From Bacteroidia bacterium (GTDB lineage: Bacteria > Bacteroidota > Bacteroidia > J057 > JANWXU01): DNA of 61,533 nt. The translations under genes were made by a program, and so were the position numbers. Every line of letters begins with the position of its first letter. The stretch's first letter is position 1. The stretch is from contig JANWXU010000008.1 of assembly GCA_025057395.1 (NCBI GenBank), forward strand, positions 1 through 61,533, read 5' to 3'. Of this stretch, positions 12,338 to 61,533 are shown in pieces. Below the pieces are notes generated by a model. The model did not search any database. It was not told where the DNA came from and saw only the letters and a list, made by a program, of their open reading frames with translations.

Positions 12338-13612
12338 TTAAATTCTATCAGCTCCAAAGTAAGGAATGAGTGCTTTAGGGAGCAATATAGACCCATCTTT
12401 TTGTTGAAAATTTTCTACCATAGCAGCCACAATCCGGGGAAGTGCTAGGGCGCTACCATTAAGGGTATGGGCTAGGAACGTTCTCTTCTGATTTTTGGAT
12501 TTTATTCTTAGTTTTAATCGATTAGCTTGATAACTTTCGAAGTTACTGATAGAGCTTACTTCTAGCCACTTTTTCTGCGCTGCACTGTAGACTTCCATAT
12601 CATAGGTTTTTGCTGAAGCAAAGCCTAGGTCACCGGTGCATAACAAGGCAACACGATAAGGAAGTTCTAATTTATCTAATAATGTTTTCACGTAGTTAAC
12701 CATTTCTTCTAATGTTTCATAAGAAGTATCAGGATGGGTAATTTGCACAATTTCCACTTTATCGAATTGATGAAGACGGTTTAGACCCCTTACATCCTTT
12801 CCATAGGAGCCTGCTTCCCTTCGAAAACATGGTGTATATCCGCATAACTTGATAGGAAGTTCACTTTCTTCAATAATTTCATCACGATAAAGATTAGTAA
12901 TAGGAACTTCGGCGGTAGGAATCAGATATAATTCATCTTGATTAATGTAATACATCTGTCCGTCCTTATCCGGAAGCTGGCCAGTACCAAAAGCAGAGTC
13001 AGGATTAACTAGAATAGGGGGTTGTACCTCTAGGTAACCATTGTGGGTGGCTTGGTCTAGAAAAAAATTAATAAGAGCTCTCTGCAGCTTTGCTCCTTGG
13101 TGATAGTAAACAGGAAATCCTGCACCACTTATTTTACTTCCTCTTTCAAAATCAATTAATTTTTTTTCGGTAACAATATCCCAATGGCATTTGGCTTCCT
13201 CAAATAGCTGGATTGCAATTTCATTTTGGTAGACAATTACATTTTCTTCACTAGACTTGCCTATAGGAACTGAGTCATGGGGAGGATTAGGAAGCTGTGC
13301 CAAAAGTTGATGAATTTCATTTTCTAATTTTTGTAAAATTTCTTCTTCCTCACTAATAGAGGCTTTAAGTTGGGCTGTCTGCTTTTTGGCAGTTTCTGCC
13401 GCTGTATTATTACCTTGAGCAATGGCTATACCTACTTCTTTTGCAATTTTGTTCATTTCTGCTCTTTTGCTTTCCACGCTTTGTAGTAGGGCTCTTCTAT
13501 TTTTATCAAGTTCTACAAGCCGCTCTATTTCTTGAGTTGCTTCGTATTTCTTGAGTTGTAGTTTACGAATAATATTGGCAGTTTCTTGCTGAATAACTTG
13601 AAGTTGAATCAT
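12338..13612 (-). CDS. serS: Seryl-tRNA synthetase
   Basis: A 424-residue class II aminoacyl-tRNA synthetase that charges tRNA-Ser. The N-terminal 110 residues form the long antiparallel coiled coil that reads the tRNA long arm (KYEATQEIERLVELDKNRR...). Motif 2 is PCFRREAGSYGKDVRGLNR, followed by HQFDKVEIV, and motif 3 is LALPRIVAAMVENFQ near the C-terminus. Length is normal. It is transcribed alone and ends at a strong hairpin terminator. Confidence 0.97.
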   Translation of the reverse strand: MIQLQVIQQETANIIRKLQLKKYEATQEIERLVELDKNRRALLQSVESKRAEMNKIAKEVGIAIAQGNNTAAETAKKQTAQLKASISEEEEILQKLENEIHQLLAQLPNPPHDSVPIGKSSEENVIVYQNEIAIQLFEEAKCHWDIVTEKKLIDFERGSKISGAGFPVYYHQGAKLQRALINFFLDQATHNGYLEVQPPILVNPDSAFGTGQLPDKDGQMYYINQDELYLIPTAEVPITNLYRDEIIEESELPIKLCGYTPCFRREAGSYGKDVRGLNRLHQFDKVEIVQITHPDTSYETLEEMVNYVKTLLDKLELPYRVALLCTGDLGFASAKTYDMEVYSAAQKKWLEVSSISNFESYQANRLKLRIKSKNQKRTFLAHTLNGSALALPRIVAAMVENFQQKDGSILLPKALIPYFGADRI

Positions 13613-46700: not shown

Positions 46701-49700
46701 TGGATATTTTTGATGCTCTATACAATCTGGTTGCTACTCAAAGTAGTGCTCCCTTTGAATATCTTACCCCTCAATTACAGCAAACCAGTGTATTCTGGTT
46801 GCAATCGACTTCTAATTATGGTTGTAAAAGTGAATTAGTATTTTTTAATGTAGAAATCGTTCCTAAGCCTCTTCCTCCTATTGTCGAAAATTTGTCACGA
46901 TGTGGACCCGGCTCCATTACCCTATCTGTACAGGGCATTGTTCCGGGGAATGTGTTAAGGGTCTATACTATTCATGATCTCCAAACTCCTTTTAGTGTTT
47001 TAACAAGCTGGCCCTATATAGTAGAGACACCAACACTTACAAGTAATACGGACTTATTCTTTATAGTACAAGATCCAATTACAGGTTGTAGTAGTGAAAG
47101 AACTATAGTAGGTTTAAAAATTCATCCTATCCCCTTAGCTCCTTTTGTTGAAAACTTGCAAAGATGTGGAGAGGGGCCTGTTACCTTTACTGTCTCACCC
47201 GCAGACAACCACACTAGTGCAATTCATGTATATGATCCTGAAATAAGCATGCTTACACCCGTAGAGGTATTGGCTCAATCTCCCTATCAATTTACGCGAA
47301 TCATTTCTTCGAATAAGACTTTTTATTTCGCTGCTGTTGATAAAGTCACCTCATGTAATAGTAATCTTGTCCTTGCACATGCCACTATTCTGGAGCCGCC
47401 GGCCAATCCAGTGGTTAATGTTGCTCAGGTACATCGCTGTGGTCCGGGGCAGGTTGTTTTAACAGTTCAAAGTTCACCAGGAGCTGAAGTACGTTTGTAT
47501 GCAAGTCAAACGGAAAACATGATTTTAGACCAAGATAATACTCATACACAGGGCTATTATCATCTTGTAACACCTTTCCTGAATGCGAGCACAACTTTTT
47601 ACATTGAGAGTTTCTTTACTTCTAACAATTGTCCAAGTAGGGTAGGGCGAGTAGCTGTGCCTGTTATTATTTATCCTTTGCCTGAGCCGCCTGTAGCAAG
47701 TAATCTTGAAAGGTGTGGTCCAGGGATAGTAACTTTTTCTTTGAATCCTACAGGCACCTCGGCTCAAACTTTAATAATGTACGATACTCCTATAGGGGGT
47801 ATTCCTATACAGAGCGTAAGTATTCCCCCGTATACAATTAGACATACGGTATTGCAAAATAGTGAATTCTATTTTGGGGCCGTGAATAATGAAACGGGGT
47901 GCCATAGTGCTTCTCGAACTAAGGTAAATATTAAATTAAATCCCGTTCCCTTACCTCCGAGTGTTGAAAATGTGAGTCGATGTGGAGACGGTATAGTAAC
48001 TTTTACTGTTTCTACAGCTGAGGCGGACAAAATTTTGGTATATGCTAATATTGATGGGGGGCAGCCAATAGGAAGTTCCACAGTGGCTCCTTATAGCTTC
48101 GCTGTTCCAATTTCTAGTTCTATAACCTCCTTTTATTTTGAAGCTGTTAATTCTACTACGGGATGTGCCAGTCCAAGGGCAGAGGCCTTAGCTATAAGGC
48201 AAGAAGTACCTTATCCTCCACAAAATGTTATAATTACGCGCTGCGGCCCGGGAGTCATTACTGTTACAGCGGTACAAAATTTTCCTCCTTTTGGAGACCA
48301 AATGCTTTTATATGAGTCTTCTGGGAATATTGTAATGGCAAGTGTAAATCGGCCACCTTTCATTTTTTCTATAAATATAACTACCACTACTACTTTCTAT
48401 TTAGCCGCAAGTGTTGCCGCAACAGGATGCCAAAGTGAAAAAGCGCCAGTTGTTATTAGAGTAGCTTCGAAGCCTGGTATTGTTAAAACTTCTTCCGTTG
48501 AACGTTGTGGCCCTGGTACTGTAACTTTCACTGCTTGGATGGGTTTTCCTGTAGGAACTTCAGTTAGATTATATAATGCTCCTGAGGAGGGAAATTTAAT
48601 TGCTGTTGATAGTGTTGGGCCACAGCCTTACTTATTATCAGTAAATGTAACCACTACTACAACTTTCTATGCTGCTGTAGATAATTTGGGATGTGGGGGA
48701 GATAGGATGCCGGTAGTGGCTTATGTGGAAAGGAAGCCTGCTATGCCTATTGCACCACCTGTTAGTCGCTGCGGCCCCGGCCGTGTAACGATAACCGCAA
48801 TCTTTGGAACACCTGCGGGATCCCAAATTAATTTATATGAAACTCCTGTAGGGGGAACTCCTATAGTTACAGATTTTAACAATCCTTTTGAGCTAATTAT
48901 ACCCTATGATATTACTAGTTCAGTTACCTATTACCTTAGCAGTGCAGTGGTGGGTGAAGACTGTGAAAGTGATAGGTTTCCTATTAAGATAAACATTCAA
49001 CCCCTACCTGTTAAGCCGGTTGTGGAAAGTGTTTCTCGTTGCGGTCCGGGGTCTGTAACTTTTAGCGTTTGGATACCAGATGCTTTGCAAGGAATGGTCC
49101 GACTTTATAATAGCCCCAGTGGAGCTCAGCCTATTGATATGCAGCCAAATCCTCCGTATCGATTTTTATCTCCACCGGTAACTACTAATACAACTTTCTA
49201 TTTCGAACATATCGATCCCTTAACTTTATGTGCTAGCGAAAGGGCGTCTGCCGAATTGAGAATTATACCAGTTCCGGGTCCTCCTACAGCTGTATCTGAG
49301 CCCCGTTGCGGTGCAGGGCCTGTTACGATTTCTGTAGCTCAAGGCCAGCCTACGGGTACTCAGTTTGTTTTATACAATAATGAACTCAATGAAATTAAAA
49401 AGGTGGATGCATCATTAAGTACCATAACAACCGATAATATAAGTAGTAGTACTAATTATTTTATTAGGGTAGTTAATACCCTAACTGGTTGTTCTAGTGC
49501 TATTGTGCTAGTTCCACTGACAATAAATCCTTTGCCCTTATCTCCCGTAGCTTCGGATGTGATACGATGTGGTGCTGGAGGAGCTACCTTTTCAGTAGAT
49601 TTACCCGATGGTTCTATAGTTCGTCTTTACGATTCAAATGACAATACTAGAGAGCTTATTGCAAGTGATAATAATGCTCCTTATTTGTTGACTATACCCT

Positions 49701-52700
49701 TTTGGGCCACAAGCCATACTTTTTATCTAGAAAGAGAGCTTGGTAGCACTGGTTGCAGAAGTGCCTTGCAACCAGTACGCTTACTTATAAATTCTATACC
49801 GGCTAAGCCCAACGTAGCAAATGTAGCTCGTTGCGGTTCCGGCAGCGTAACGTTTAGTGTTCAAATGGGATCGCCTCCGGGAAATCAAGTTTTTCTGTAT
49901 GCTGCTTCAAGTGGAGGGCAGTCTATTACTTCTGCTACTACCGCTCCTTATTTGCTTACTTCTCCTAATATTCAAAACACAACTACCTTCTATTTTAGCA
50001 GTTTTCATTCTCAAACAGGTTGTGAAAGTGAAAGAACCGCTGCAATTGCTATCATCAATCCATTACCACCTGCTCCAGTAGTCAATAATAATGTTATTCT
50101 ATGTGGTATAGGGCAGGCTAACTTTTCTGCTTTTGTAGAGCATTCAAGTGTAAACAGGGTAGTTCTTTACAGTGAGCCTAATTTACTTTCTCCTGTTAAT
50201 GAAACTTCTATTAAGCCTTTTATTCTAAAAACACCTTTGATTGAAAATAGTAGAACGTATTGGATTGCTGCTATGAGTGATCAGGGTTGTCCTAGTGAGT
50301 TTGTACCAGCTTCTGTTTTGGTGTATGCGCCTCCTGCTCCTCCTGTTTTTCAAACTGTAGAACGATGTGGTCCGGGGTTAGTTACTTTAACTTTTCGAAT
50401 GGGTTCTCCTGCAGGTAACCGAATTCTGTTATTTTCTCAGGAAACAGATGAGTCGCCCTTTATTACACTATCTCATTCTCCATATTTAGCACCGTTGGTG
50501 GTTAATGAAACAAAAGTTATTTATGCCCAAGTACTTAATTCTAATTTAGGGTGTGCAAGCATTAAGTTGCCGGTTACTATAAAAGTTAACCCAGTCCCCG
50601 AGCGACCTGAAATACAAAGTAATGCCCCTATTTGTAATGGAGAAACTTTAAAACTAAGTATTCTTTCTCCCAATTCAAATCACACTTATCTGTGGCGTGG
50701 CCCCGATGGATGGCAACAAATAGGTGCAACCGTTTATCGAAGTATTAGTGCAATCGAGTTAGGAGGAACGTACAGTGTGGTTGCTATTGCGGGCTCATGT
50801 ACTTCTGAAGCTGCTTCAGAGAATATAATAATTAGAAGGGGAATTCCAACCCCAGTCGCGGGGGCATACCATATTTACAATGACCCTACTGCCCATTGCG
50901 AGGGTAATGAACTTAATTTGGAAGTAAAAAATTATGATCAATTCCCGGCGGGTACAGAGTTTGTTTGGCGAGGACCTAATCAAACTACCGTTGCTACACA
51001 TCCTCATCCTGCCTTTCCTAATGCTTCTCCTAGTCTTTCGGGAACCTATGCTGTATATGCAGTTTATCAGGGCTGTACCTCAAAGGTAGATACCATACGA
51101 GTACGCATTTATCCGAAGCCCGCACCCCCTACCTATACAGGAAATACGATATTTTGTGAGGGTAGTTCAAACTTTTCACTCTCTATTCTTCCTTTGCCAC
51201 CTAGCGCTATGGAGTATTACTCCTATCAATGGCACGGGCCTAATGGTTTTTACCAAACCGGAACTACAGTATCTAGGCCCTCTATTTTGCCTAATGCGGG
51301 TACTTACACTGTAAGAACGGTAAGTAGTTATGGTTGCATATCAGAGCCTACTCATATCACTGTTGAAATTATACCTAGGCTTCCCTTGCCTACAATTGTG
51401 GGACCTAGTTCCATTTGCATGGGGCAAAGATTGAAAATTGATGCTTCGAGTAGCTTAAGTAATCCTATTTATTATTGGCGTGGACCTGGAGGATGGCAAT
51501 TTGTAGGTGGAGCTACTGTTGAACGAGAAAATGTTGTTTTATCAGATGGTGGTACCTATTCAGTATCTGTGGTTTCTAGAGGTTGTACTTCTGCACCTAG
51601 TACTATTAATGTTGAGGTAAGACGTGCGCCAGCTAAGCCCCCTATTTTCGATAATTCACCTATTTGCGCAGGTGATCGTCTAGTACTATCTACTACTCCT
51701 ATAGAAGGGGCATATTACTACTGGCAAGGTCCATGCTTTGAGCATAGCGGCGCCGATTATCGTATATTCCGAGAAGCTATTTTATCAAGGTGTGCTGGTC
51801 CTCATTCTTTGACAGTTATACAAAACGGCTGCTCTTCAGAAGTAGCAATAAAAAGTATCAGTATATATAATAAACCTATAATAAGCGTTACTAATGATGG
51901 TCCTAAGTGCCTGGGAAATGAAGTAACTTTAAGTGTACAAGGGGAGGATGGTCAGCCATTGCCACCAGGAACACAATTTATCTGGAGCGGTCCTAATGGC
52001 TTTAATGTGACTTCTACTTCTTCTACAGTAAATCGTCTCCTTCAAACCTCGCAAGATCAAGGTACGTACAGTGTAATTGCTGTAGTGGCTACCAATTGCA
52101 GTTCTGTTACGCAGACTACTTTAGTACGCACACAACCGGTACCTACCCTACCAACAGTTGTAAATGATGGTCCTAAGTGTGAGGGAGAAAGACTGACTTT
52201 TACTGTTACAGGCAGTCCAGGTGCTACCTATTTATGGCGAGGACCTAATGGTTTTAATGTAACTACTACCCAGACTAGTATCTCACGAACATCGGTTACG
52301 GTACAGGACGCAGGACAGTATAGTTTACAAATGGTAGTTCGAGGTTGTACTACGGTTGCCCAAATTTCTAGTGTAGTGATACGTCCTAGACCGCCGCTTC
52401 CTATTGCAAATGCCACTTCTCCTGTGTGTGAGGGAAATACTATTACTTTAAGTGCATCGGGAGTTCAGCCAGTTGTTACTTATCGGTGGGCGGGACCAGG
52501 AGCTTTTGTACGTACTACTACAGAAAATAACCTAACTCTTCCTAATGCTCAACCTGGTTCGTATGCTTATACTGTTACAGCTATTGTTGCGGGGTGTACT
52601 TCTCTACCTGCAGTAACTACAGTTGAAGTTTTGCAAGTACCGCTTGCTCCGAATATTACTGTGGATGGTGGTATACGCAAGTGTGTAAATGATATCTTGC

Positions 52701-55168
52701 AATTAAATGCTTCTATTGAGCAAGAGCCTGCCACTTATATTTGGAGTGGACCACAAGGGTATAGCGCTGTAGGAAACAGTGTAAATAAGCAGCTTTTATC
52801 TCCCCAAGAAGCAGGTTACTATGAAGTTTTTGCTATTTATCAATCTTGTACTACTGCAAAGAGCCGAATCTACATAAATGTGAATGATAGGCCTGCCCCT
52901 CCTTCAATTAGAGGTAATTCTCCTGTTTGTGATGGTGAAAGAATTCATTTAACCGCTATTACAGGGGATAATAGCTATGAATTTTATTGGAATGGTCCTG
53001 GTGGCTTTAGCTCTACAAGTTCTGAAATTAACCGAATAGCTAATAGTTTAAGTGCTGGTGCTTATAGTGTTGTAGCTATTCAGGGAGGCTGTACCTCGAG
53101 TGTATCAGTGCGAAATATCCAAGTAAATCCTGCTATTCCACTTCCTGAAGTTCGTTCTAACTCTCCCATTTGTACAGGTCAAACGCTAGAATTTACAGTA
53201 TTAGGCTCGCCATTAAATAATGCTCGCTACGAATGGAGTGGACCTAATAATCGGTTTTCTACTCAGTTCAAGGCTGTGTTTACGAATGTTACCACTAATG
53301 ATGCTGGTACTTATACTTTAATTATCCGCCAAAATGGATGTGCTTCTATACCAATTACTTTACCTGTCGAAATACGATCAACACCATCTGCTCCTGTAGC
53401 TACTAATACGGGTCCGGTTTGTGAAGGTCAGAGTTTAAATCTTGAAGCTAGTGCCGTGCCTGGAGCTACTTACTTATGGCGTGGGCCCCAAGGTTTTTCT
53501 GCGACTACACAAAGTGTTACCCTAAGTAATGTATTAACAAACCAGAGCGGTACTTACAGTGTGCAGGCAATAGTACAGGGTTGTACCTCAGGGGTTTCTA
53601 CAACACTTGTTAGTATCCAACCTAAGCCGGCAACGCCCCTAGTAAGTAGTAACCGTATTATTTGCTCAGGTAATACGTTAGAATTAACAGCAGTTGCTCA
53701 AAGTTTAGTGAGTGGTTACCAATGGGAAGGACCTAATGGTTTTTATGCTAGCAGTCAAAATGTGAGAATTGTTAATATAACTACTTTGGCTACAGGTACT
53801 TATGTGGTGCGTACTCAAAGAGGAAATTGTTTCTCTGACCCTGCGCGCATACAGGTTACTGTTTTACCGACACCGGAACCTGTACTAGTAGGAAATAATG
53901 GACCGCTTTGTCAAGGGCAGGAACTGCAACTTACCGCTTCTTTATTTGTAGGAGCTTCTTACCATTGGAGCGGGCCAGCTAACTTTACTTCTACTGAGCA
54001 AAATCCTATTGTAGGCAATCCTTCAACAGGTACCTATAGTGTGAGGGTAGTTTTAGGTCAATGTACTAGCCGCACTGTAGAAACCCGTGTAACCATTTTT
54101 GAAAGTCCTGCTGTACAAGTTTCCAACAATAGTCCAATTTGTGCTGGCGATAAACTTGAAATTCATGCTACCCATAATCCTGAGTGGGTCTATCAATGGC
54201 GCGGGCCTAACGGATTTTTACATAATCAAAATAGTATAGTAATTGAAAATGCTACTTTGCGTAATGCTGGTGTTTATACTTTAGAGGTTGCTAATAGTAA
54301 TTGTAGAAGTGAGCAGCTTTTAATTCAAGTAGCTATTCTTTCTCCTCCTCTAGTGCCTAGTGTTAGTCAAAATGGGCCGCTTTGCAATGGACAGGTATTA
54401 CAACTATTTGCTACTTCTACACCGGGAGCTGGTTACTTATGGAGAGGGCCAGGTGGATTTATTTCTACTTTACAAAATCCAATAGTTCAAAATCCTATAC
54501 CAGGTATCTATTCAGTAGTATCGATAATGAATGGTTGTACATCTCTCCAAGCTACGGAAACGGTAGTAATAAACAACGCTAATTGCTGTCCGGCTCCAGC
54601 AAGTCCTTTCGTGGAGGTTATTAATCCAACTACAGCAAAAATTAATTGGGCTAACACCTTAGAAGGTCCTATATGCTATATTGTTAGCTATGGACCTAAA
54701 AATCAGGATCCAAGTTCTTGGTTATACTCCAATCTTGTTCCCTACCCTCAAACTTCGCTAGTAATAGATAATTTAGATCCAACTATTGAGTATGGTGTAC
54801 AAATTCGTTCAAATTGTACTGCTTGTGCAGCCCGGAGTGGAAATCGTTCTGCAACTGTTGAGACAAGTTTTAGAACCATAAATGCCAAATCTTATGGTAA
54901 TTTTGAGGAGAAGATATGGGAAACGCAAGTATACCCTAACCCCAATAGTGGTCTATTTACTGTGCACTTACGTAGTAATTTTAGTGGAACGATTACACTT
55001 TCTTTGCGGGATTTGGGAGCTCGTTTAGTGTGGCAAAAGTCGTTCAATTTTGAAGAAGGTAATAGTATACTGCCGGTAGATTTGATGTATATTTCCCCAG
55101 GTATTTATACGTTTGAATTTCGTAATGAAGAATCCTCTAAAGTAGTAAAGTTGGTAATTAGCCGATAA
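37790..55168 (+). CDS. Giant (5792-residue) T9SS-exported repeat protein, probable adhesin
   Basis: Signal peptide 1-43 (ends GVEVIAQ). A module starting KIRLRIWVKRAW (about 51) recurs at VHRLRVWIDSLW (about 332). Then an Ig-like and a PKD-like segment (to about 765), a beta-helix-like part broken by Gly-rich blocks (about 770-1290), and a linker region. From 1519 to about 4270 there are 31 Ig-like repeats (period about 89) opening RCGPGxVTFTV and closing TGCxS. From about 4280 to 5595 there are 16 repeats (period about 83) with CxG, WxGPNGF and GCTS. An Fn3-like domain (about 5600-5700) and a T9SS type A sorting domain (VYPNPNSG, closing KLVISR) end it. Each repeat keeps two cysteines, so a disulfide per domain is likely. 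Ligand unknown. Confidence 0.9.
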   Translation: MNNYTIVTKYNLKIFNTTLIAKVIFIIFACFWGVGSGVEVIAQPNKLNDGKIRLRIWVKRAWSNSHAGNPVNVDVPNVLDDPLPELFVPNVGGLLPQPVWKNQEYVWKVRIRPNADVDGNGWTPWATFQSPSNNANPPVTQSPYSWTDVFLGNPNTLIFDHVFNSTSVPTKFDWQLEAFEEDCRTNTAFGLLNSCGATTGEFDVRCGCAISCWSFTCIYGDDDRSFGGFALPNPPVNNGDTRYFRGGSGQAGDRRIIQVESDNGRFAVQFEYEWYYVPTNTPAQNAFQHITNQASVPATPPSVFPLDTMCTSIGHNNDGYADGGGTANSPNVHRLRVWIDSLWCDSREDIPFINPADLVLIYQFKDNLQNNNQYTPPDFGAYNQCAPPATCAGYIWFSQNNPQWNTQSSYTCNLYNNPGGAANNLPRLVLDRQYPAGQNAASSFQFRMVAWEESCDQTCGSVQGSTQCAGNSFGLMYGGPNIFPPFQLSWNWLNCFGQWLACTVNPDRDYSGPQVPNQPNMPLNQIINMDSIFYRASIPNTDNFITIPLKTNGSQSGNWTVRLRYRWDIQDPIITQQPPTQVSRCANSNTPTQLCAQAEFGTYYQWQKAVLDPCGNGVVWQNIPNANCPCYDVPVGAAGIETYRLRVRNRNGSGSKSATGTWYAETYTQPIKVATLPYAPPISSPVCGGSVFGNTSATFSVCPVPGATSYSWSVTGPGTVTPSSGSGTTFTVTNFGNTPGTYTITLTVNSTCGSATSTCTVGVDTITVCNYIYVTPNGVKANVGSLQYPTTFDGAIQIANSNPNRKHIRILSGTYNNVPRVTLTASNVIIDGGYQVCGSVWCKQSNLNASTIINFNPAEENVTINNQLVAHKRGLVLASTANGTKIQDLTINVAGFQPNDRTPEGRGKSVYGIYIDGASNYKITRCAINTGNASTGANGVNGGNGQPGKPGAAGRNNSGTCDCIACGIPVPDPSNLPNSVCQNPDNFGSGGLGGEGGAGGIGGGGAPGGQTGDSGGTGGMGGHASNDNTNAGSPGANGLNGGGAGGTGGAAPGAPPAFQLTPLVPQAQCNTGGGNGGAGAAGAAGTPGANGTTPGGVVANGFYLPDKGTDGQPGGAGKGGGGGGGGGQSRSLCVVMYQGPQFCIPFTNICFYIPLPCTPRTGESGAGGGGGGGGGGGGGAGSGGFGGGATYAIFAWNAGSGVITDCSLNPGTPGAGGTGGTGGTGGAGGAGGAGGANVCGTGAPAGAGGAGGAGGAGGNGGNGGNGSTGHQYAIYNGGSATITVAGTSSSCVVFTHPNPNPNTASTSCGSLPNCPQITVETNPAWCTNSEISFTKASGTWASLGANSDYTPNLTYPNSTFCNPHTSYTSASSPAVGYYSNASIIEGKTPDLGTCQYLDFVHVNTLRNPPIININGAPALVPPLRHRFCGQACITLTGNKNHPGIAKEYFWEISRITPTCSVVILTSNAKDPGNVCLNDPEVYQIKFQVKDECCGWSIPVYAIIDNRRPQKPTVVAPGPRCGPGIVTLTATPDVPSNGIRWYNAATNAFEGNQLILSKNITTTTTYCAASVDVSVPPPPGCESSDVTCATAVVNPLPGEPNIPNVARCGNGEITFSVFMSAPSGDQACLYDFSGITQISCDLSNPYNLTTPPLTQTTTYCIRAEFSATGCKSNCKPVVATIHSIPSPPISNNIQKCGTGCVTFTAFMGAVQGTVIRLYDHPTAGNNIDSSPANLLTACNVTTNSTFYLEVFNANTGCASPRIPVSVDILGQPGNPTVTATNVARCGPGFVTFTVNMGNPPGNVAELYLNSNAAAPIATDDSSPYELAVQATVTTSYCIRAKDSNNGCTSNQCVPVTATVNFIPGLPTVANVSRCGAGNVTFTIANAGFPPANRFLLYTQPAGGTPVASVTLPLTQITTNVTTTTIFYIESLNTSTGCQSASRLAVSAIVQPEPILTLTSSNVEICGPGDVTLNPSFGPAGGDEAQLYDANCSLLITNDKTAPYQLKTPYVTTTTTFALKAKNNSTGCESSTCLPVTIIVKPLPMPPTVNDVARCGIGNLTFTITNVPPGGTVFVYNQLVGGSPVATISGPNYEFQLSNLANTTTYYFENYDPQTQCMSGSRTQAKAIINPFPSRATLSSNSISRCGSGEVTIPVNLQNPTNTQVFLTTAIGAPPVQVDANSPYEFKVDVQNDVTYYLCTENVVTGCKREDDCIAVTISISQLPASPVPQSQSVQRCGPGLVTFTVNLGGSVGDVIRLYDAPVGGTLRAVSSNGPDFILTPNGGVLQTTTTFWLEAGSSATGCVSSSRTQVVAVIQPVPNPPSVTSSNLSVCSGGGGVISVQTNDPNTQEIRLYNTASASVPLQTITLPNNQFNINNISQNTTYYLESFSTVTSCRSTTRTSISISVIPPPEPATPPSIISSCGPGEARITIANVPPGNEVLMYNEISGGVLLESSIVAPYSFTVPIVTGQEKYCFEVRNLATSCLNATRRCTEAVLHQPPAPPAVPPTLKLCGGGIQRFTVTMPANNLVLEVYNSLTGGAPIAIDATEPYTFDTPEIRTTTTFYLQAYHPVHNCRSPRVPAVVTVYPIPSAPPALTDIRRCGSGDVKFTASMGLQITGDSLRLYDAAQGGNMIARAKGPVAEFTIPNVSTHSVFFLENYNSATGCVSERTPIYVKINRIPSPPYTANAARCGTGIVNFSATLTGGMGDAVRLFTQPSGDSPIYVDYTAPFEVLTPVITQETSYFLDVVNLETQCSSSRVGVTAFINPIPSPPVAIDFKRCGSGPASITAVLGNGGDEIQIFENEVGGAPIQVDNQSPYVLFIPNVEQTRYYYVQSVERATGCASGRVPVKVEILDIPEAPMISSVSRCGAGVVTLTISNLVQNGVVSVLNDNFEPIIFGNPAPNQISIQVTSTSRFYVEVINNSTILHCKSSRSPVEVIVNPIPPSPTAANVRRCGVGSVRVLINAQNAARVDIFDALYNLVATQSSAPFEYLTPQLQQTSVFWLQSTSNYGCKSELVFFNVEIVPKPLPPIVENLSRCGPGSITLSVQGIVPGNVLRVYTIHDLQTPFSVLTSWPYIVETPTLTSNTDLFFIVQDPITGCSSERTIVGLKIHPIPLAPFVENLQRCGEGPVTFTVSPADNHTSAIHVYDPEISMLTPVEVLAQSPYQFTRIISSNKTFYFAAVDKVTSCNSNLVLAHATILEPPANPVVNVAQVHRCGPGQVVLTVQSSPGAEVRLYASQTENMILDQDNTHTQGYYHLVTPFLNASTTFYIESFFTSNNCPSRVGRVAVPVIIYPLPEPPVASNLERCGPGIVTFSLNPTGTSAQTLIMYDTPIGGIPIQSVSIPPYTIRHTVLQNSEFYFGAVNNETGCHSASRTKVNIKLNPVPLPPSVENVSRCGDGIVTFTVSTAEADKILVYANIDGGQPIGSSTVAPYSFAVPISSSITSFYFEAVNSTTGCASPRAEALAIRQEVPYPPQNVIITRCGPGVITVTAVQNFPPFGDQMLLYESSGNIVMASVNRPPFIFSINITTTTTFYLAASVAATGCQSEKAPVVIRVASKPGIVKTSSVERCGPGTVTFTAWMGFPVGTSVRLYNAPEEGNLIAVDSVGPQPYLLSVNVTTTTTFYAAVDNLGCGGDRMPVVAYVERKPAMPIAPPVSRCGPGRVTITAIFGTPAGSQINLYETPVGGTPIVTDFNNPFELIIPYDITSSVTYYLSSAVVGEDCESDRFPIKINIQPLPVKPVVESVSRCGPGSVTFSVWIPDALQGMVRLYNSPSGAQPIDMQPNPPYRFLSPPVTTNTTFYFEHIDPLTLCASERASAELRIIPVPGPPTAVSEPRCGAGPVTISVAQGQPTGTQFVLYNNELNEIKKVDASLSTITTDNISSSTNYFIRVVNTLTGCSSAIVLVPLTINPLPLSPVASDVIRCGAGGATFSVDLPDGSIVRLYDSNDNTRELIASDNNAPYLLTIPFWATSHTFYLERELGSTGCRSALQPVRLLINSIPAKPNVANVARCGSGSVTFSVQMGSPPGNQVFLYAASSGGQSITSATTAPYLLTSPNIQNTTTFYFSSFHSQTGCESERTAAIAIINPLPPAPVVNNNVILCGIGQANFSAFVEHSSVNRVVLYSEPNLLSPVNETSIKPFILKTPLIENSRTYWIAAMSDQGCPSEFVPASVLVYAPPAPPVFQTVERCGPGLVTLTFRMGSPAGNRILLFSQETDESPFITLSHSPYLAPLVVNETKVIYAQVLNSNLGCASIKLPVTIKVNPVPERPEIQSNAPICNGETLKLSILSPNSNHTYLWRGPDGWQQIGATVYRSISAIELGGTYSVVAIAGSCTSEAASENIIIRRGIPTPVAGAYHIYNDPTAHCEGNELNLEVKNYDQFPAGTEFVWRGPNQTTVATHPHPAFPNASPSLSGTYAVYAVYQGCTSKVDTIRVRIYPKPAPPTYTGNTIFCEGSSNFSLSILPLPPSAMEYYSYQWHGPNGFYQTGTTVSRPSILPNAGTYTVRTVSSYGCISEPTHITVEIIPRLPLPTIVGPSSICMGQRLKIDASSSLSNPIYYWRGPGGWQFVGGATVERENVVLSDGGTYSVSVVSRGCTSAPSTINVEVRRAPAKPPIFDNSPICAGDRLVLSTTPIEGAYYYWQGPCFEHSGADYRIFREAILSRCAGPHSLTVIQNGCSSEVAIKSISIYNKPIISVTNDGPKCLGNEVTLSVQGEDGQPLPPGTQFIWSGPNGFNVTSTSSTVNRLLQTSQDQGTYSVIAVVATNCSSVTQTTLVRTQPVPTLPTVVNDGPKCEGERLTFTVTGSPGATYLWRGPNGFNVTTTQTSISRTSVTVQDAGQYSLQMVVRGCTTVAQISSVVIRPRPPLPIANATSPVCEGNTITLSASGVQPVVTYRWAGPGAFVRTTTENNLTLPNAQPGSYAYTVTAIVAGCTSLPAVTTVEVLQVPLAPNITVDGGIRKCVNDILQLNASIEQEPATYIWSGPQGYSAVGNSVNKQLLSPQEAGYYEVFAIYQSCTTAKSRIYINVNDRPAPPSIRGNSPVCDGERIHLTAITGDNSYEFYWNGPGGFSSTSSEINRIANSLSAGAYSVVAIQGGCTSSVSVRNIQVNPAIPLPEVRSNSPICTGQTLEFTVLGSPLNNARYEWSGPNNRFSTQFKAVFTNVTTNDAGTYTLIIRQNGCASIPITLPVEIRSTPSAPVATNTGPVCEGQSLNLEASAVPGATYLWRGPQGFSATTQSVTLSNVLTNQSGTYSVQAIVQGCTSGVSTTLVSIQPKPATPLVSSNRIICSGNTLELTAVAQSLVSGYQWEGPNGFYASSQNVRIVNITTLATGTYVVRTQRGNCFSDPARIQVTVLPTPEPVLVGNNGPLCQGQELQLTASLFVGASYHWSGPANFTSTEQNPIVGNPSTGTYSVRVVLGQCTSRTVETRVTIFESPAVQVSNNSPICAGDKLEIHATHNPEWVYQWRGPNGFLHNQNSIVIENATLRNAGVYTLEVANSNCRSEQLLIQVAILSPPLVPSVSQNGPLCNGQVLQLFATSTPGAGYLWRGPGGFISTLQNPIVQNPIPGIYSVVSIMNGCTSLQATETVVINNANCCPAPASPFVEVINPTTAKINWANTLEGPICYIVSYGPKNQDPSSWLYSNLVPYPQTSLVIDNLDPTIEYGVQIRSNCTACAARSGNRSATVETSFRTINAKSYGNFEEKIWETQVYPNPNSGLFTVHLRSNFSGTITLSLRDLGARLVWQKSFNFEEGNSILPVDLMYISPGIYTFEFRNEESSKVVKLVISR
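40517..41650 (+). repeat. Beta-helix-like rungs alternating with glycine-rich blocks
   Basis: Within the giant gene, three related rung-like segments (YGIYIDGASNYKITRCAINTG, first 20 residues around codon 911; YAIFAWNAGSGVITDCSLN near codon 1192; YAIYNGGSATITVAG near codon 1274) are separated by long Gly-rich stretches (about 255 and 60 residues). The first block contains runs of 9 and 13 consecutive glycines. DNA here is much more G-rich than its surroundings. Confidence 0.75.
40766..40816 (+). other. G-quadruplex-forming motif with exact 9-base period
   Basis: G runs of 5 start at 40766, 40775, 40784 and 40793, followed by GGGG at 40802 and GGG at 40810 and 40814, separated by four-base loops (TGAA, AGCA, CATA, TGGA, CTCC). 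This satisfies the strict quadruplex rule on the coding strand, so also in the mRNA. It encodes part of the Gly-rich block. Confidence 0.8.
42341..50600 (+). repeat. Array of 31 Ig-like repeats, type 1, in the giant gene
   Basis: Counting the conserved RCGxG-type opening (variants KCGTG, ICGPG, VCSGG, LCGGG) gives 31 units between codons 1519 and about 4270; mean spacing of the first and last is 89 residues. Each unit ends TTTFYLEAxNxxTGCxS and is joined by a Pro-rich linker. DNA identity between units is low, so they are old duplications. Confidence 0.85.
50601..54582 (+). repeat. Array of 16 Ig/PKD-like repeats, type 2, in the giant gene
   Basis: Units open with SPxCxGxxLxLxA, carry YxWxGPNGF in the middle and GTYxVxxxxxGCTS near the end. 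Sixteen opening cysteines are counted from codon 4282 to 5532, period about 83 residues. The type is clearly distinct from the 31 units before it. Confidence 0.85.
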
Positions 55169-55182
55169 TATTCTTTAAATAT

Positions 55183-55215
55183 AAAAGCTACCCTCTCTTT
55201 AAGAGGGTAGCTTTT
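55183..55215. terminator. Bidirectional terminator between the giant gene and cas2
   Basis: AAAAGCTACCCTCT (55183-55196), a CTTTA loop and AGAGGGTAGCTTTT (55202-55215) form a 14-bp stem with T-tails in both directions, between two convergent transcription units. Confidence 0.92.
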
Positions 55216-55244: not shown

Positions 55245-55508
55245 TTATATTATTTTATCCAGAGATCTTTTCTCAACGCCAATAATTTGTCTTTGAATTC
55301 CATTAGGATTAGGCTGTGTGAAGATGATTAAGCTATCATGCTCTAAGACCATAATTTTTTTTGCTTCTTGGACTAATTTTTTTAGTTGTGCTTCTGAAAG
55401 TTCACCCTCAAAGACAGAGTTCTGTATCCAGTTCAAAAATCTTCGGCAGAGTTTTAGCATTTTGCTTACTCTTTCTTCGCCTACATCATAAACTAATATT
55501 ACGTACAT
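55245..55508 (-). CDS. cas2: CRISPR-associated endonuclease Cas2
   Basis: An 87-residue ferredoxin-fold protein of the spacer-acquisition complex. It begins MYVILVYDVGEERVSKM, with the conserved Asp of VYDV, then LKLCRRFLNWIQNSVFEGEL, the usual Cas2 second helix/strand. It bridges two Cas1 dimers during integration of new spacers. Last gene of the cas operon, 15 bases after cas1; no repeats follow it before the terminator. Confidence 0.95.
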   Translation of the reverse strand: MYVILVYDVGEERVSKMLKLCRRFLNWIQNSVFEGELSEAQLKKLVQEAKKIMVLEHDSLIIFTQPNPNGIQRQIIGVEKRSLDKII

Positions 55509-55523
55509 ACGTGTTACTTTTTA

Positions 55524-56534
55524 TTACCACCATGCTTGTAGGGGCTTGTAAGGCTGAATTTCCATTATGTGTTTAATGATTTTATAGGCTTCCAAACGAA
55601 TAAGGGTTCGATAACTTACACTTCGTTTAAGTGCTTTATGCTTAATGGTAGTATTTAATTTATTTTCAAATGCACGCACAAACGTTTTACAGCCCTCTTC
55701 ATTGAGTACACATCGCATAGCTTCTTTTTGAAAATCCTTGAGTTGTATTTGCTTAGTATTAACGAGCTGAAATATAAGACGGTCGGTAATAAGGGGCTTA
55801 AATATTTCAGCTACATCTAGACAAAGGGAAAATCGACGATAGCCTGGTTCATGTAAGTAGCTAATGGTTGGATTTAGCTGGGTTTTATGAATTTCTCGTA
55901 AGCAAATGGTGTAACACATACTATTAGCAAAAGAAATTAAAGCGTTAATTTCATTAGTGGGGGGATTTTTTGTTCTGCCTTCAAAAGGGAAATCGGGAGG
56001 AAGAATAGCATTAAACCCTTGGTAATAATATTGCTTTAAATTACCCTCAATTCCCATAAGTTCAGCAATTGTCTGAGCTTCTTGCACCTGTTGGAGAAGA
56101 AGATTCATAGCCTGAATAATTTCTCCTAGTTCTTCTTTACCACGAACATGGTAATATTGCAGGTTTCGTAGCATTATTTTAGCGGCGCCTGTTACAAATT
56201 GGCGAGCAAGCCATATCCTGAGCTTAGGATCTAGATAAAATCGGGCTTGTGCTATGACTACTGCTCCTGCATTGAGCTGCTCGCGCGGCATGAAAGAGCC
56301 CGTATAATTGCGATAATAATCGTAAAAATGGACAGCTACTTGTTTACGTCCTAAGAAATTTAGGGCTGCTGTATTAAAATCTAGGGCGCCAAAAGCATAA
56401 ATTGTTTCTGTAGCTTCTATAGGAAATCTTTTGATTATGGTTGGCTTTTGCTCTCCGTTTTGATGGTATAAAACTAGGCTTTGGTCTTCTCGCTTAATCC
56501 TACCTGCTTGGAATATATAGTAAGTATTAGCCAT
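55524..56534 (-). CDS. cas1: CRISPR-associated integrase Cas1
   Basis: A 336-residue Cas1. The N-terminal beta domain has YYIFQAGRIKREDQSLVL and the helical domain carries the metal site: Glu in NEINALISFANSMCY, His in ISYLHEPGYRR and Asp/Glu in LDVAEIFKPLITDR. These are the residues that join prespacers to the CRISPR repeat. The GRIKREDQSL start and length fit the Cas1b branch associated with types I-B/I-C. It is 14 bases from cas4 and 15 from cas2. Confidence 0.96.
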   Translation of the reverse strand: MANTYYIFQAGRIKREDQSLVLYHQNGEQKPTIIKRFPIEATETIYAFGALDFNTAALNFLGRKQVAVHFYDYYRNYTGSFMPREQLNAGAVVIAQARFYLDPKLRIWLARQFVTGAAKIMLRNLQYYHVRGKEELGEIIQAMNLLLQQVQEAQTIAELMGIEGNLKQYYYQGFNAILPPDFPFEGRTKNPPTNEINALISFANSMCYTICLREIHKTQLNPTISYLHEPGYRRFSLCLDVAEIFKPLITDRLIFQLVNTKQIQLKDFQKEAMRCVLNEEGCKTFVRAFENKLNTTIKHKALKRSVSYRTLIRLEAYKIIKHIMEIQPYKPLQAWW

Positions 56535-56548
56535 AGAGCAAAAGAATT

Positions 56549-57064
56549 TTATTCATCGGCATAACAAAATTCATAGTAGGCACATTTTTTACAGAAAGGT
56601 TTATTTACTACAGGAGGACATTGCTTTGAATTTCGGGTTTTAATTACCTCTTCCATCATTTTATTCAAAATTGGAATATCTTCTGGAATCAAAGTTACAA
56701 TTTGAGTTTGGTGGAAGCGGGGATATTCTAGAATCCCCGTCCATTGCTGAAAGCCGTATTGAGAAAGCACATAAAGGTAAAATTTAAGCTGCCAGATATG
56801 AGCACTTTGAAAAGCAGGGCTACGCTTGATCTCGCGTACAGTTTTGCTTTGTGCGTCTAGATAATCAATTTTAATTCTAGCAATAGCCAGGCCCTGAAAT
56901 TTCTTTTTTCTTCGGGTGTAGGCGTACTCTTCTAAGATACGTCCTTGTTGTACAAGATCGCTGAACTTTTCAAGCTGTATACCGTGCTGAAAAAGCCAAA
57001 GTCTTCTTTTACAGCTTGCTAAGTAAGAAATTTCTGTACCTGAAACAAGCTCAAATAGTTGCAT
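56549..57064 (-). CDS. cas4: CRISPR-associated exonuclease Cas4
   Basis: A 171-residue RecB-like Fe-S nuclease of adaptation, trimming prespacers and helping choose the PAM. The iron-sulfur cysteines are SCKRRLW near the N-terminus and PFCKKCAYYEFC at the C-terminus. The nuclease core shows REIKRSPAF (catalytic Glu-Lys) and HIWQLKFYLYVL (QxxxY motif). It starts one base inside the cas7 stop, so translation is coupled. Confidence 0.93.
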   Translation of the reverse strand: MQLFELVSGTEISYLASCKRRLWLFQHGIQLEKFSDLVQQGRILEEYAYTRRKKKFQGLAIARIKIDYLDAQSKTVREIKRSPAFQSAHIWQLKFYLYVLSQYGFQQWTGILEYPRFHQTQIVTLIPEDIPILNKMMEEVIKTRNSKQCPPVVNKPFCKKCAYYEFCYADE

Positions 57065-58209
57065 TAGGAACTAATATGGGCATCGTAATTGTAATTTTGT
57101 AACATTTCTATGATACGATTTTCTGCGTTCGCAAGGGCATCTGCTTCAGCCTCGATATTACCAGGTATATAACTTTCTGCAGGCAAACTTACAAAAAGTT
57201 CAGCTTTAGCATTTCTATCTAATACAGGAATAGCTTGAGGTCTATCTACTTCTTCTATATCTCGCAAACGGGCACGAATAGCACCTGCTACATATTGAGC
57301 ATTATGGCTAATAGCTACTGCTAAAGTTTCCATAAGTCCAAAAGTTCGAGCTTGATTGCTTGTAATTCGCCAGTTAATCACGGCGTTAGCAATTGCTGGA
57401 ATCATTTTTTCTCTTTCTTCCTTAGGGCAAACTAAACAAGGCCCATAGCTATTATAACCTCTTTTCCAGCCTTTTTCTTCGAGCTTTTTGGCAGTTAAGT
57501 TATCCACTTCAGGCTCTACAGGGTCTAGGTTTACGCAAAATAAGCGTTCCATATCAATACATATATCCACTACATATAAACCTGTAGCACGCCGCTGGTC
57601 TTGTATATATTTGCGTTTTTTGGGTGTTGCTCCATCGAAATTACTTAGAAGTTCCACTAATTCTTCATCACTAAGCATTCTCCCTTCTTTGCCTTCTCTT
57701 ACTACTACCTTGCTTGTAGGAGTACTAGAGCGGTCGAAGGAAATATTTTCTTCGGAGGTACCCGCTAACAAAGGGTGTAGAGGGCGCATAGCTGATATAC
57801 ACAAAGGGCTTCTGCGCTTTACTACAAAGCTACTTTCTTTAGAGTCTCCCTCATCTTTTTCCTTTGTGGGCTTATCTGCTTGTTTTTTGGCTCGCATATA
57901 TCCTCCAATAAGTTGATCGGGATAACTAGGGTCTGCTAACGAAAGAGCTTCGCCCTCCTTAAATTTTATTTTGCCCTTACTATCTTTCTCCATTACCCAA
58001 ACAAAATGTATAGGGGCTAGAGAGAGATTGAGGTTACTACAAAGGGTATCAATAATACTTCTCTTTACTTGCTGCCCGCTAGAATAAGGTTGCGCTCTAT
58101 TAAAACGCGGGTCATAATATATTTTTTGTCCATCTGCTACGCAAAATACAGTATAATCAGCGTTTCGTAGTGCTCTAATGTAGATGTGTTTAGGTGTATT
58201 GTTTAGCAT
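57064..58209 (-). CDS. cas7: Cascade backbone protein Cas7 (Csp1/Csd2-like)
   Basis: A 381-residue RAMP-fold protein that polymerises along crRNA. The N-terminal strand region (YIRALRNADYTVFCVADG), ISAMRPLHPLLAG, and SHNAQYVAGAIRARLRD fit Cas7. It is longer than the Csd2 subunit of type I-C (about 290). The extra length is a charged, Ser/Lys/Glu-rich stretch (about 100-205). This size and the gene order suggest the Porphyromonas-type Csp1 group. The call as Cas7 relies on operon position as well as sequence. Confidence 0.8.
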   Translation of the reverse strand: MLNNTPKHIYIRALRNADYTVFCVADGQKIYYDPRFNRAQPYSSGQQVKRSIIDTLCSNLNLSLAPIHFVWVMEKDSKGKIKFKEGEALSLADPSYPDQLIGGYMRAKKQADKPTKEKDEGDSKESSFVVKRRSPLCISAMRPLHPLLAGTSEENISFDRSSTPTSKVVVREGKEGRMLSDEELVELLSNFDGATPKKRKYIQDQRRATGLYVVDICIDMERLFCVNLDPVEPEVDNLTAKKLEEKGWKRGYNSYGPCLVCPKEEREKMIPAIANAVINWRITSNQARTFGLMETLAVAISHNAQYVAGAIRARLRDIEEVDRPQAIPVLDRNAKAELFVSLPAESYIPGNIEAEADALANAENRIIEMLQNYNYDAHISS

Positions 58210-58243
58210 AATTTTGATGTTTTTTATGTTTTAAAAAAATAAT

Positions 58244-59713
58244 TTAATTTTTAGCAGTTTTGTGATAAACGAATAAGAAATATACTAAACTCTGAAATAA
58301 CGGGAAGCGGTCGGGTGCCATTGCTGTTACTTCTTTTACTACCTGATAAAAATTTTCAGCTTTTTCTAATAAATGGTCGTCACCCCCGCTTCTAAGCTGC
58401 TTCAGAATATCTGCTAAGCCTTCTATAAATTTTTGACGGCTTTTTTTATCAAAGAGGTTTAATACCTCATTTTCTTTGGCAGTAGTACGAGTGCCAGCTT
58501 GGTACTCATAAAGATTTTCTGCAAGTTTATCGGCTAGATCAAATAGGTTCATTTTTTTATCTTTATTTTGTTGTTTTACTAATAGCGCTGCTAACCATAG
58601 AATTTGTTGTTGTAAAATGAAAATATCTTTATCTTTTAGTTTGAATTCTCCCTTTTCATTGGGTTTAATATCTGATTGTTGTGGTTCAAAAGCGTACAAT
58701 CCGATACTTCCTCGTTGACAAACTTTTTGGATTCCAAATCTACTCTCGTATTCTTGAATGAAATTTTTGATGTTATACTGAAAACCCCGGTGTTTGAGCC
58801 TAGGCACAGGACCATATAAGATATTAAATAACTCGATAAGGCTATGAATCTCAGAAAGGTATACGGGTATATAGCCTACAGTTATATTAGTTTGGCCGTA
58901 TTGATACACATATCCTAGAAATGTTTGATTAGGAAAATTTTCACTAAGGTGTAAAAATAGGTCAGTCCATTTAACTGTTTCAAGCCTTTCTCCTTCTTTA
59001 GAAATATAATTTTGTAAGTAAGGTGCAAAGCCTGCGGGAAGAGTTTCAAGCGAAGTATTAATTAACTGGTTATCTAGTAAAAAGTTAAGCCAAATCCCGT
59101 TCCAGGTATCCAGTTGTCTCCCTTTAAGTTGAGGATTCTCGTTGAGAATTTGACGATAATATTTCCATCCGGCAGCTAAAAGTTTTAGCAGTGTTTCTTC
59201 TAAAAAAGTGAAACAAAATCCTCCTCTTACTCCTATGCCCAAACCTGCACCTATCCACGAAGCATACACTTCTTCTTCAAAAATTTCTTCTTCTTTTTCA
59301 GCTAGAAAAGGGTAAAAAATATTGGAAGTTTGACCTGCTGTGGTACCATCTAACCCTGCTGCTGCATAGCCTACGTAGGTACCTGCATGGAGCTTTTCTA
59401 CAGGTGCTACGAATGCCTCCTTAATACCACTTTGTAAATATTTGTAGCGTAGAGTTGATTCATTTCCTCCTAGGGCAATTTCTTTTTCTAATTCTTCTTT
59501 TTTGACTTTTCTTGCAGCATGAAAGGAAGAGTTATGCACAGAGTTAAGGTGCTTGGTATTTTCTGTATTGTAGAAAAGAGGAAAAATGATTTTATCGAAG
59601 AAAGCTTTAGCAGAAAGCTTTTCTCCCTCGGGTTTATCTTGGTTATAAATTTGGAGATATAATTTACCAGCTTGTGTTGCGTACATAATTTTTAATATTT
59701 TTAGGTTATACAA
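58244..59713 (-). CDS. cas8: Cascade large subunit Cas8 (Csp2/Cas8c-like)
   Basis: A 489-residue protein in the large-subunit position between cas3 and cas7. The first part has a Gly-rich GYAAAGLDGTTAGQTSNIFY stretch and a WIGAGLGIGVRGGFCF segment; the C-terminal third is helical. It is shorter than Cas8c/Csd1 of type I-C (about 580) and resembles the Csp2 group of the PGING variant. It should recognise PAM and recruit Cas3. Start: the ATG at 59713 overlaps cas3 by 8 bases, but the ATG at 59686 (MYATQAGKLYLQ) is as good. Identification is by position and weak similarity. Confidence 0.68.
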   Translation of the reverse strand: MYNLKILKIMYATQAGKLYLQIYNQDKPEGEKLSAKAFFDKIIFPLFYNTENTKHLNSVHNSSFHAARKVKKEELEKEIALGGNESTLRYKYLQSGIKEAFVAPVEKLHAGTYVGYAAAGLDGTTAGQTSNIFYPFLAEKEEEIFEEEVYASWIGAGLGIGVRGGFCFTFLEETLLKLLAAGWKYYRQILNENPQLKGRQLDTWNGIWLNFLLDNQLINTSLETLPAGFAPYLQNYISKEGERLETVKWTDLFLHLSENFPNQTFLGYVYQYGQTNITVGYIPVYLSEIHSLIELFNILYGPVPRLKHRGFQYNIKNFIQEYESRFGIQKVCQRGSIGLYAFEPQQSDIKPNEKGEFKLKDKDIFILQQQILWLAALLVKQQNKDKKMNLFDLADKLAENLYEYQAGTRTTAKENEVLNLFDKKSRQKFIEGLADILKQLRSGGDDHLLEKAENFYQVVKEVTAMAPDRFPLFQSLVYFLFVYHKTAKN

Positions 59714-61533
59714 TAAAATCAGCTTCTTGGAGTACTAAACCTAATATAGGATCATACATTTCATCTGGTACGATATAGGGCCAATTGCCTTTACTACTAC
59801 GTGCAAATTGATCTTTATAAGGAAATAAACTTTTGAGAAATACAGGAATTTCATACAAAATGCGGCTACTTTTTGTTTGATGAGGCTTTTCATAGAGTTC
59901 CTTATCTTTTTCCAAAATACATACTACAGAATCAATTTCTAATGCTTCTAATAAAACTGCTCTTTTAGAATTAGTTAAGGGCTGAATATGCCATTGATTT
60001 TCTTTGAATACTAGATATGAATTAATTGAAGAAAGGTCAAGATCTGGGTAAATGATATCTAGCATATTTTGAATATTCCTTTCCTCTAATATTTCACCGT
60101 CATTAGGCAATACATTAAAGCTTTTTTCTACAATTGAAGTTATATAAGGGCGGCAGGGCGGAGTAGGGATTAAAACATAAACAGGCTTATACGTTCCTAT
60201 TACCTGGGGTGTTCTTTTACGATTGATTCTACCAAAACGCTGGATAAGGGAATCCAAAGGCGCAGCCTCTGTAATCATTATGTCAAAGCTGATATCTAAG
60301 CTTACTTCTACTACCTGTGTAGTTAGCACAAGGCAAGGACCTTCTTGGAGATTTAGCTGCATTAGTTTTTTTTCAAGCTCAATTCTGTCTATCCTTCTAA
60401 ATCGATTATGAAGTAAAAGCTTAGGAATAGAAGGGAATAGTTGCTGCAGCTCGGGAAATAAATTTTGTGCTCGCTTTACCGTGTTACATACCCATAATAC
60501 TTTTTCTTTTTGAGTAATAGCCTTTTGTACAATTTCTAAAGCTTGCGAAGTTTGGGAAAGCTTATAAATTCTATGTCGGTTATAACTATCAAGTTCTTCA
60601 TTGGTTAAATGAACTTCATAAGTATTAGCTTCTCCTCCTAGTAATTTTTTCAAACAATTGTATAGAGCGGTTGGCATAGTGGCGGTGCCTATGTGAATCC
60701 TACAGCCCAAGTGAACTAAAGCTTCTACAAGAGCTACTACCATAGCTTGGGCTTGCTTATTATATGTGTGGATTTCATCTAGAATGATATCTGTTCCTTT
60801 AACATCCAAGATAGCTGCTTCAAAACCTGGCGTACCAAAAATAATACTTGCTAATTGGTGAGGGGTGAGAACTTTTACGCTAGCTCCTACAAAGGGTTGT
60901 AATATGCGCTCTTCAAGGGTAGTTTTATTATCAGGTAACGAGAGCTGGGAGCAAGCATGCAAGAGGCGAATATCAGTACCTTCTTTAAAGTAAGGGTGCT
61001 CTTTTTTTTGCGGGCTATAGCGTAAGCGCTCATACATTGCATTAATAGAAGCTTGGTAGGGCAATACATAAAATACACGACCTTTGCACCTACGGAGTAA
61101 AAAGTCTGTTTTGCCCGAACCTGTAGGTGCAGTTACTAGGGTATGAGATCGTTTATCTTGAGTATCTTTTAATAATAAAGGAAAAAGTGTAGAAACAGGA
61201 CGGTTATGAATAGGAGTAAAGTCGGGAATGACAAAAAGTTTTTCAGGAAAATTAGTTTCTTGTGCTTCTAAAGCTGAGCACATATGGTCGGCAGCCATTA
61301 GTAATCCTCGTAAATAGGAATATCCTGCAGTGGTTCTTTGGTGCTTACAAAATTGGAGTACATACCGCAATGCTTTTTTAGCTTCTTCGTAGGTAATTGA
61401 ATGAACTTGCATCCCTAGCGCCTCTAATATAGCAAGGGCCTTAGGCTGCCAATCTTCCCAATTTTCAGCATGGGCTTCAAAACTTTCTTCAAAGCCGAAA
61501 GTTTCAAACATATCTAAAAACCCTTTTTCTTTA
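59706..61533 (-). CDS. cas3: CRISPR helicase-nuclease Cas3, 5' end outside window
   Basis: The DExD/H-box helicase of type I interference. Walker A is TAPTGSGKTDFLLRR, the DEAH-like box is ILDEIHTYN, motif III is IGTATMPTAL, motif V is TTQVVEVSLDISFD and motif VI is SLIQRFGRINRK. Upstream, LRGLLMAADHMCSAL looks like the last conserved Asp of an HD nuclease domain, and the frame stays open past the ATG at 61511 to the window edge. The gene is therefore longer than 601 codons and probably starts with a full HD domain. It is first of the visible cas genes, order cas3-cas8-cas7-cas4-cas1-cas2. Confidence 0.92.
   Translation of the reverse strand, partial: KEKGFLDMFETFGFEESFEAHAENWEDWQPKALAILEALGMQVHSITYEEAKKALRYVLQFCKHQRTTAGYSYLRGLLMAADHMCSALEAQETNFPEKLFVIPDFTPIHNRPVSTLFPLLLKDTQDKRSHTLVTAPTGSGKTDFLLRRCKGRVFYVLPYQASINAMYERLRYSPQKKEHPYFKEGTDIRLLHACSQLSLPDNKTTLEERILQPFVGASVKVLTPHQLASIIFGTPGFEAAILDVKGTDIILDEIHTYNKQAQAMVVALVEALVHLGCRIHIGTATMPTALYNCLKKLLGGEANTYEVHLTNEELDSYNRHRIYKLSQTSQALEIVQKAITQKEKVLWVCNTVKRAQNLFPELQQLFPSIPKLLLHNRFRRIDRIELEKKLMQLNLQEGPCLVLTTQVVEVSLDISFDIMITEAAPLDSLIQRFGRINRKRTPQVIGTYKPVYVLIPTPPCRPYITSIVEKSFNVLPNDGEILEERNIQNMLDIIYPDLDLSSINSYLVFKENQWHIQPLTNSKRAVLLEALEIDSVVCILEKDKELYEKPHQTKSSRILYEIPVFLKSLFPYKDQFARSSKGNWPYIVPDEMYDPILGLVLQEADFIV

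What the first reader, a model, noticed from the sequence alone, without database searches (positions are those of the whole stretch)
55245..61533. Type I CRISPR operon without cas5 or cas6 in the expected place
The order cas3-cas8-cas7-cas4-cas1-cas2 is the I-C layout, but I-C has cas5 between cas3 and cas8 and here cas8 overlaps cas3 by 8 bases. In I-C, Cas5 processes the crRNA, so its absence leaves crRNA processing unexplained. Either cas5/cas6 lie upstream of cas3 beyond the edge, or Cas8/Cas7 have taken over the role. The genes look closest to the PGING (Csp1/Csp2) variant.
Basis: partly seen in the sequence, partly recalled or inferred. Interest (0 to 1): 0.6.

Follow-up and report, generated by a model that had tools for sequence, protein, structure and literature searches.

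The report
Ordinary CRISPR operon cut by contig end
The window holds most of a common type I-B bacterial CRISPR immune operon; its apparently missing genes, cas6 and cas5, lie on another contig of the same genome, because the assembly breaks in the middle of cas3.

Summary
The window is the whole of contig C233, and cas3 runs off its end without its HD nuclease domain. In the same genome, contig C204 ends with cas6, cas5 and the first 122 codons of cas3, including the HD domain. The two cas3 pieces match positions 4-106 and 119-688 of one Cas3b profile. The contig ends share 5 bases; joined there they give one open 730-codon cas3 frame (stop included) that aligns with five relatives without loss at the joint. 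The order is cas6-cas5-cas3-cas8-cas7-cas4-cas1-cas2. In a wider scan 27 of 30 loci have cas6-cas5-cas3-cas8; the other three start at a contig end. The order is in print for Bacteroides fragilis type I-B (PMC5704556). The system is type I-B, not I-C, with a Cas6 for crRNA processing. The 8-base cas8/cas3 overlap follows from an unlikely TTG start. Arrays are unlinked, at the ends of three other contigs.

The parts
59706..61533 (-). cas3, C-terminal 608 codons (helicase part), cut by the contig end; the N-terminal 122 codons with the HD domain lie at the right end of contig C204
   Evidence: Cas3b profile 119-688; joined frame of 730 codons, no internal stop; C204 piece: profile 4-106; HD domain
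58244..59686 (-). cas8b, 480 aa from the ATG at 59686 (the 489-aa reading with a TTG start at 59713 is unlikely)
   Evidence: PADLOC Cas8b, 1e-91; six-sequence alignment starts at this Met
57064..58209 (-). cas7b, 381 aa
   Evidence: PADLOC Cas7b, 7.1e-143
56549..57064 (-). cas4, 171 aa
   Evidence: Cas_Cas4, 7.7e-43; Cas4b
55524..56534 (-). cas1b, 336 aa; the only Cas1 found in the genome
   Evidence: (TIGR03641, 432.9 bits over cut-off 304.1)
55245..55508 (-). cas2, 87 aa
   Evidence: CRISPR_Cas2, 1.5e-21; Cas2b
55183..55215 (.). 14-bp perfect inverted repeat between the convergent ends of cas2 and the giant ORF 37790-55168; probable shared terminator. There is no CRISPR array here
   Evidence: read directly; one search lists no array-like tandem repeat in the window

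Best explanation
This is the downstream part of a complete, ordinary type I-B CRISPR-Cas operon of the kind common in Bacteroidota: cas6-cas5-cas3-cas8b-cas7b-cas4-cas1-cas2. The assembly breaks inside cas3, so cas6, cas5 and the HD-domain end of cas3 fall on contig C204 and the rest on C233 (the window). Inferred from the families: Cas6 cuts the repeats of the crRNA precursor; Cas5, Cas7 and Cas8b form the surveillance complex; Cas3 (HD nuclease plus helicase) degrades the target; Cas4, Cas1 and Cas2 acquire spacers. The crRNAs come from arrays elsewhere in the genome, with a 29-nt repeat and mostly 37-nt spacers. Shown here: gene content, order, families, the split of cas3 and the arrays. 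Inferred: that the two contigs are physically adjacent, that these arrays are served by this operon, and every biochemical step.
For: The window is the whole contig and cas3 is open at its edge. C204 ends with cas6 (PADLOC Cas6b, 1.4e-64), cas5 (Cas5b, 2.1e-60) and a 122-codon cas3 start open at the contig end. The two cas3 pieces cover complementary parts of the Cas3b profile PDLC02079, 4-106 and 119-688. The contig ends overlap by 5 bases (TAAAG); joined there they give 730 codons, stop included, with no internal stop, colinear with five relatives of 707-727 aa. One match each for the cas5 and cas6 queries in the genome. Of 22 genomes of the order 6 have a related Cas8, own included; the 5 others all have cas6-cas5-cas3-cas8. 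Of 30 loci of the genome-contig scan, 27 have cas6-cas5-cas3-cas8, 2 start just before cas5 and 1 starts inside cas3; 22 carry the whole order to cas2. The same order, with 29-bp repeats and spacers of mean length 37, is in print for B. fragilis type IB (PMC5704556, passages seen).
Against: No read, long contig or close relative that spans the break was available; a 5-base overlap is too short to prove adjacency by itself. No third contig overlaps either end: 120-base queries from each end gave only themselves plus matches at E of 0.79 or worse. An insertion in cas3 with a 5-base target duplication would also leave TAAAG on both sides. Unlike three relatives examined, no array follows cas2 here.
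Confidence: 0.97

Rival explanations
1. The operon lacks cas5 and cas6, and Cas8 or Cas7 processes the crRNA.
For: None of the six window proteins is a Cas5 or Cas6.
Against: Cas5 and Cas6 genes exist in the same genome, next to the start of what is most likely the same cas3.
Confidence: 0.01
2. cas3 is truly interrupted, for instance by an insertion sequence flanked by a 5-base target duplication (TAAAG), which would both break the assembly and disable interference.
For: Both contig ends carry TAAAG; multi-copy insertion elements commonly break assemblies (recalled).
Against: Neither contig end holds any base that is not cas3 coding sequence; contigs that stop at a repeat usually run some way into it (recalled).
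Confidence: 0.03
3. A subtype I-C operon with displaced cas5.
For: The order cas3-cas8-cas7-cas4-cas1-cas2 resembles I-C apart from cas5 (recalled).
Against: All best models are I-B, Cas1c is far below its cut-off, and a Cas6 is present; in I-C, Cas5 can replace Cas6 (PMC11096372, passage seen).
Confidence: 0.01

Closest known systems
Type I-B CRISPR-Cas of Bacteroides fragilis (PMC5704556)
   Same: Same order: cas6, cas5, cas3, two genes (cas8b and cas7), cas4, cas1, cas2; 29-bp repeats and spacers averaging 37 nt.
   Different: In B. fragilis the array follows cas2; here no array lies beside the operon in the stretches examined, and arrays sit on other contigs.
Type I-B loci of other Bacteroidota, for example Emticicia, Algoriphagus, Bacteroides salyersiae, Saprospiraceae
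   Same: Same genes in the same order; repeats of the three relatives examined share the frame TTAATCG-ACC...GGAATTGAAA.
   Different: Cas8 is only 27-33% identical.
Synechocystis PCC 6714 type I-B (PMC11096372, passages seen)
   Same: Same set of effector proteins: Cas8b, Cas7b, Cas5b, Cas6b, Cas3.
   Different: No convincing match to any solved chain for the Cas8 or Cas5 profile from these six genomes (one chance-level hit each), so these subunits are far diverged.

Membership tests
Type I-B CRISPR-Cas (Bacteroidota branch) | Cas8b large subunit | tested here: met
   PADLOC Cas8b, 1e-91, the only family matched
Type I-B CRISPR-Cas (Bacteroidota branch) | Cas7b and Cas5b | tested here: met
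   Cas7b 7.1e-143; Cas5b 2.1e-60 on C204
Type I-B CRISPR-Cas (Bacteroidota branch) | a separate Cas6 nuclease | tested here: met
   Cas6b 1.4e-64 on C204; Pfam Cas_Cas6_C over its cut-off
Type I-B CRISPR-Cas (Bacteroidota branch) | Cas3 with HD nuclease and helicase | tested here: met
   HD on C204, helicase in the window; met if the two pieces are one gene
Type I-B CRISPR-Cas (Bacteroidota branch) | Cas1b, Cas2 and Cas4 | tested here: met
Type I-B CRISPR-Cas (Bacteroidota branch) | CRISPR array in the genome with a related repeat | tested here: met
   15 exact matches to a pattern made from relatives' repeats, none to its control, near the ends of three contigs; not adjacent to the operon
Type I-B CRISPR-Cas (Bacteroidota branch) | crRNA-guided interference | not testable with these tools
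   needs an experiment
Type I-C CRISPR-Cas | Cas8c/Cas7c/Cas1c models and no Cas6 | tested here: not met
PGING (Csp1/Csp2) variant | match to Csp1 and Csp2 models | tested here: inconclusive
   NCBIfam 20.0 gave no family for Cas8 and only weak DevR-type matches below cut-off for Cas7; I did not check whether such models are in that release

The most novel reading that the evidence does not exclude
Outside the cas operon: the 315-nt phage tape-measure-like stretch between two perfect repeats in the C22 array, and the crAss-type ring-protein stretch after the single repeat in C216, are real oversized spacers rather than assembly chimeras that slipped from a spacer into a phage of the same sample.
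Probability: 0.05. Interest if true: 0.4.

Novelty: already known. Interest (0 to 1): 0.06.

Why it matters
It removes a false lead. No type I system without Cas5 and Cas6 needs to be explained; the gap comes from reading a contig end as an operon end. It is a useful caution for scans of fragmented assemblies.

Tried and rejected
The generic Cas5 model TIGR02593 found nothing over its cut-off in the genome (4 places, best E 0.62), and NCBIfam did not recognise the three relatives' Cas5 given to it either. Only a relative's Cas5 used as query found it, so a search with that model alone would have wrongly supported absence.

Considered and rejected: loss of cas5/cas6; I-C; crRNA processing by Cas8/Cas7; a TTG start for cas8. 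An insertion in cas3 is not excluded but has no positive sign beyond the shared 5 bases. Literature: the search (Csp1, Csp2, CRISPR, PGING, Porphyromonas gingivalis; 15 of 25 listed) showed nothing on the PGING subtype; the one paper opened from it (PMC5907639, one passage) used the letters only in a database address. Searches gave the two papers used. I did not run a structure prediction.

Full report
Observation. The six genes exist as described: cas2 55245-55508, cas1 55524-56534, cas4 56549-57064, cas7 57064-58209, cas8 58244-59686 and cas3 59706 to the edge, all on the minus strand (families). The window is the whole contig C233 of a 244-contig genome. The cas3 frame is open to the contig end, and it matches the Cas3b profile only from position 119, so its nuclease end is missing from the window. 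The 8-base overlap of cas8 with cas3 assumes a TTG start; six aligned Cas8 proteins share the Met-Tyr start that here is the ATG at 59686.

Where cas5 and cas6 are. Five of 21 other genomes of the order carry a related Cas8 (6 of 22 with the own genome). In all five, cas6 and cas5 lie directly upstream of a 707-727-residue cas3. PADLOC names were obtained for three of the five; for the other two the genes were assigned by alignment and by profile on what appear to be the same records. One relative's Cas5 and Cas6 as queries each found one place in the own genome, both on C204 (46% and 44% identity). The right end of that contig reads cas6 (L021 11776-12459), cas5 (12521-13144) and 122 codons of cas3 (13141-13506) up to the contig end, with Cas6b, Cas5b and Cas3b assignments and an HD domain over Pfam's cut-off.

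The joint. The last bases of C204 and the first of the reverse-complemented window share TAAAG. Joined there, cas3 is 730 codons long, stop included, without an internal stop, and the alignment with five relatives shows no gap at the joint. The C204 piece covers positions 4-106 of profile PDLC02079 and the window piece 119-688. No other contig overlaps either end. Adjacency is therefore strongly indicated but not spanned by a single sequence.

Generality. One scan of genome contigs with the Cas8 alignment gave 30 loci. With profiles of Cas3, Cas5, Cas6 and Cas8 and single-sequence searches for the rest, 27 of 30 show cas6-cas5-cas3-cas8; L044 and L046 start about 50 bases before the cas5 frame, and L051 starts inside cas3; 22 of 30 carry the order through to cas2. 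Four of the 30 (L041, L043, L055, L059) appear to be the same records as four of my five relatives, judging from contig lengths, and the profiles were built from those relatives plus the own sequences, so these are not independent. The same order is given in the legend of Figure 3 of PMC5704556 for B. fragilis type IB (passages only), where the repeat is 29 bp and spacers average 37. That paper also notes operons cut off by contig ends.

Subtype. PADLOC's best model is an I-B one for each of the eight genes; NCBIfam names Cas1b over its cut-off. A Cas6 is present, so crRNA processing needs no special explanation. In I-C, Cas5 can replace Cas6 (PMC11096372, passage). The only Cas1 found in the genome is the one in the window, which fits a single adaptation module.

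Arrays. No array shows in the window or in C204:8000-21506; the first 7,999 bases of C204 were not read. A pattern drawn from the relatives' repeats hit 15 times, with no control hits, near the right ends of C21, C22 and C216. The repeat is GTTTTAATCGGACCGTAGCGGAATTGAAA with mostly 37-nt spacers. The 250 or so bases before the first repeat of C21 and C216 are 86% identical, which suggests two arrays with related leaders, away from the cas genes. In the relatives L014, L015 and L017 the array follows cas2.

Verdict. An ordinary, already described kind of type I-B operon split over two contigs.

Noticed in passing
own genome C22:54150-54467 (in L032): Between two perfect CRISPR repeats lies a 315-nt stretch that encodes a tape-measure-like phage piece (weak match to Cellulophaga phage phi39:1, E 3e-3; PHROG tape measure, E 0.0056). 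Two ordinary 37-nt spacers of the same array match inside it with 2 mismatches each: either an assembly chimera through a spacer or an oversized spacer, and a sign of repeated acquisition from one phage gene.
   Followed up: partly
own genome C216:18531-18821 (in L034): After a single leader-end repeat the contig runs on into an open frame that matches the crAss-type phage tail ring protein 2 family over Pfam's cut-off, probably an assembly slip from the newest spacer into a phage of the same sample, which would suggest a crAss-like phage as target.
   Followed up: partly
own genome C21 (L033) and C216 (L034), upstream of the first repeat: Two leader-like stretches, 86% identical over 256 bases, at two places away from the cas operon: at least two arrays probably served in trans.
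   Followed up: partly
L014 4955-5869, L017 3683-4663: Two relatives carry a WYL-domain regulator gene upstream of cas6; on C204 the gene upstream of cas6 is instead one on the opposite strand, 10589-11560 of L021.
   Followed up: no
window 37790-55168: A 5792-codon open frame, convergent with cas2, with many repeated units of similar sequence.
   Followed up: no
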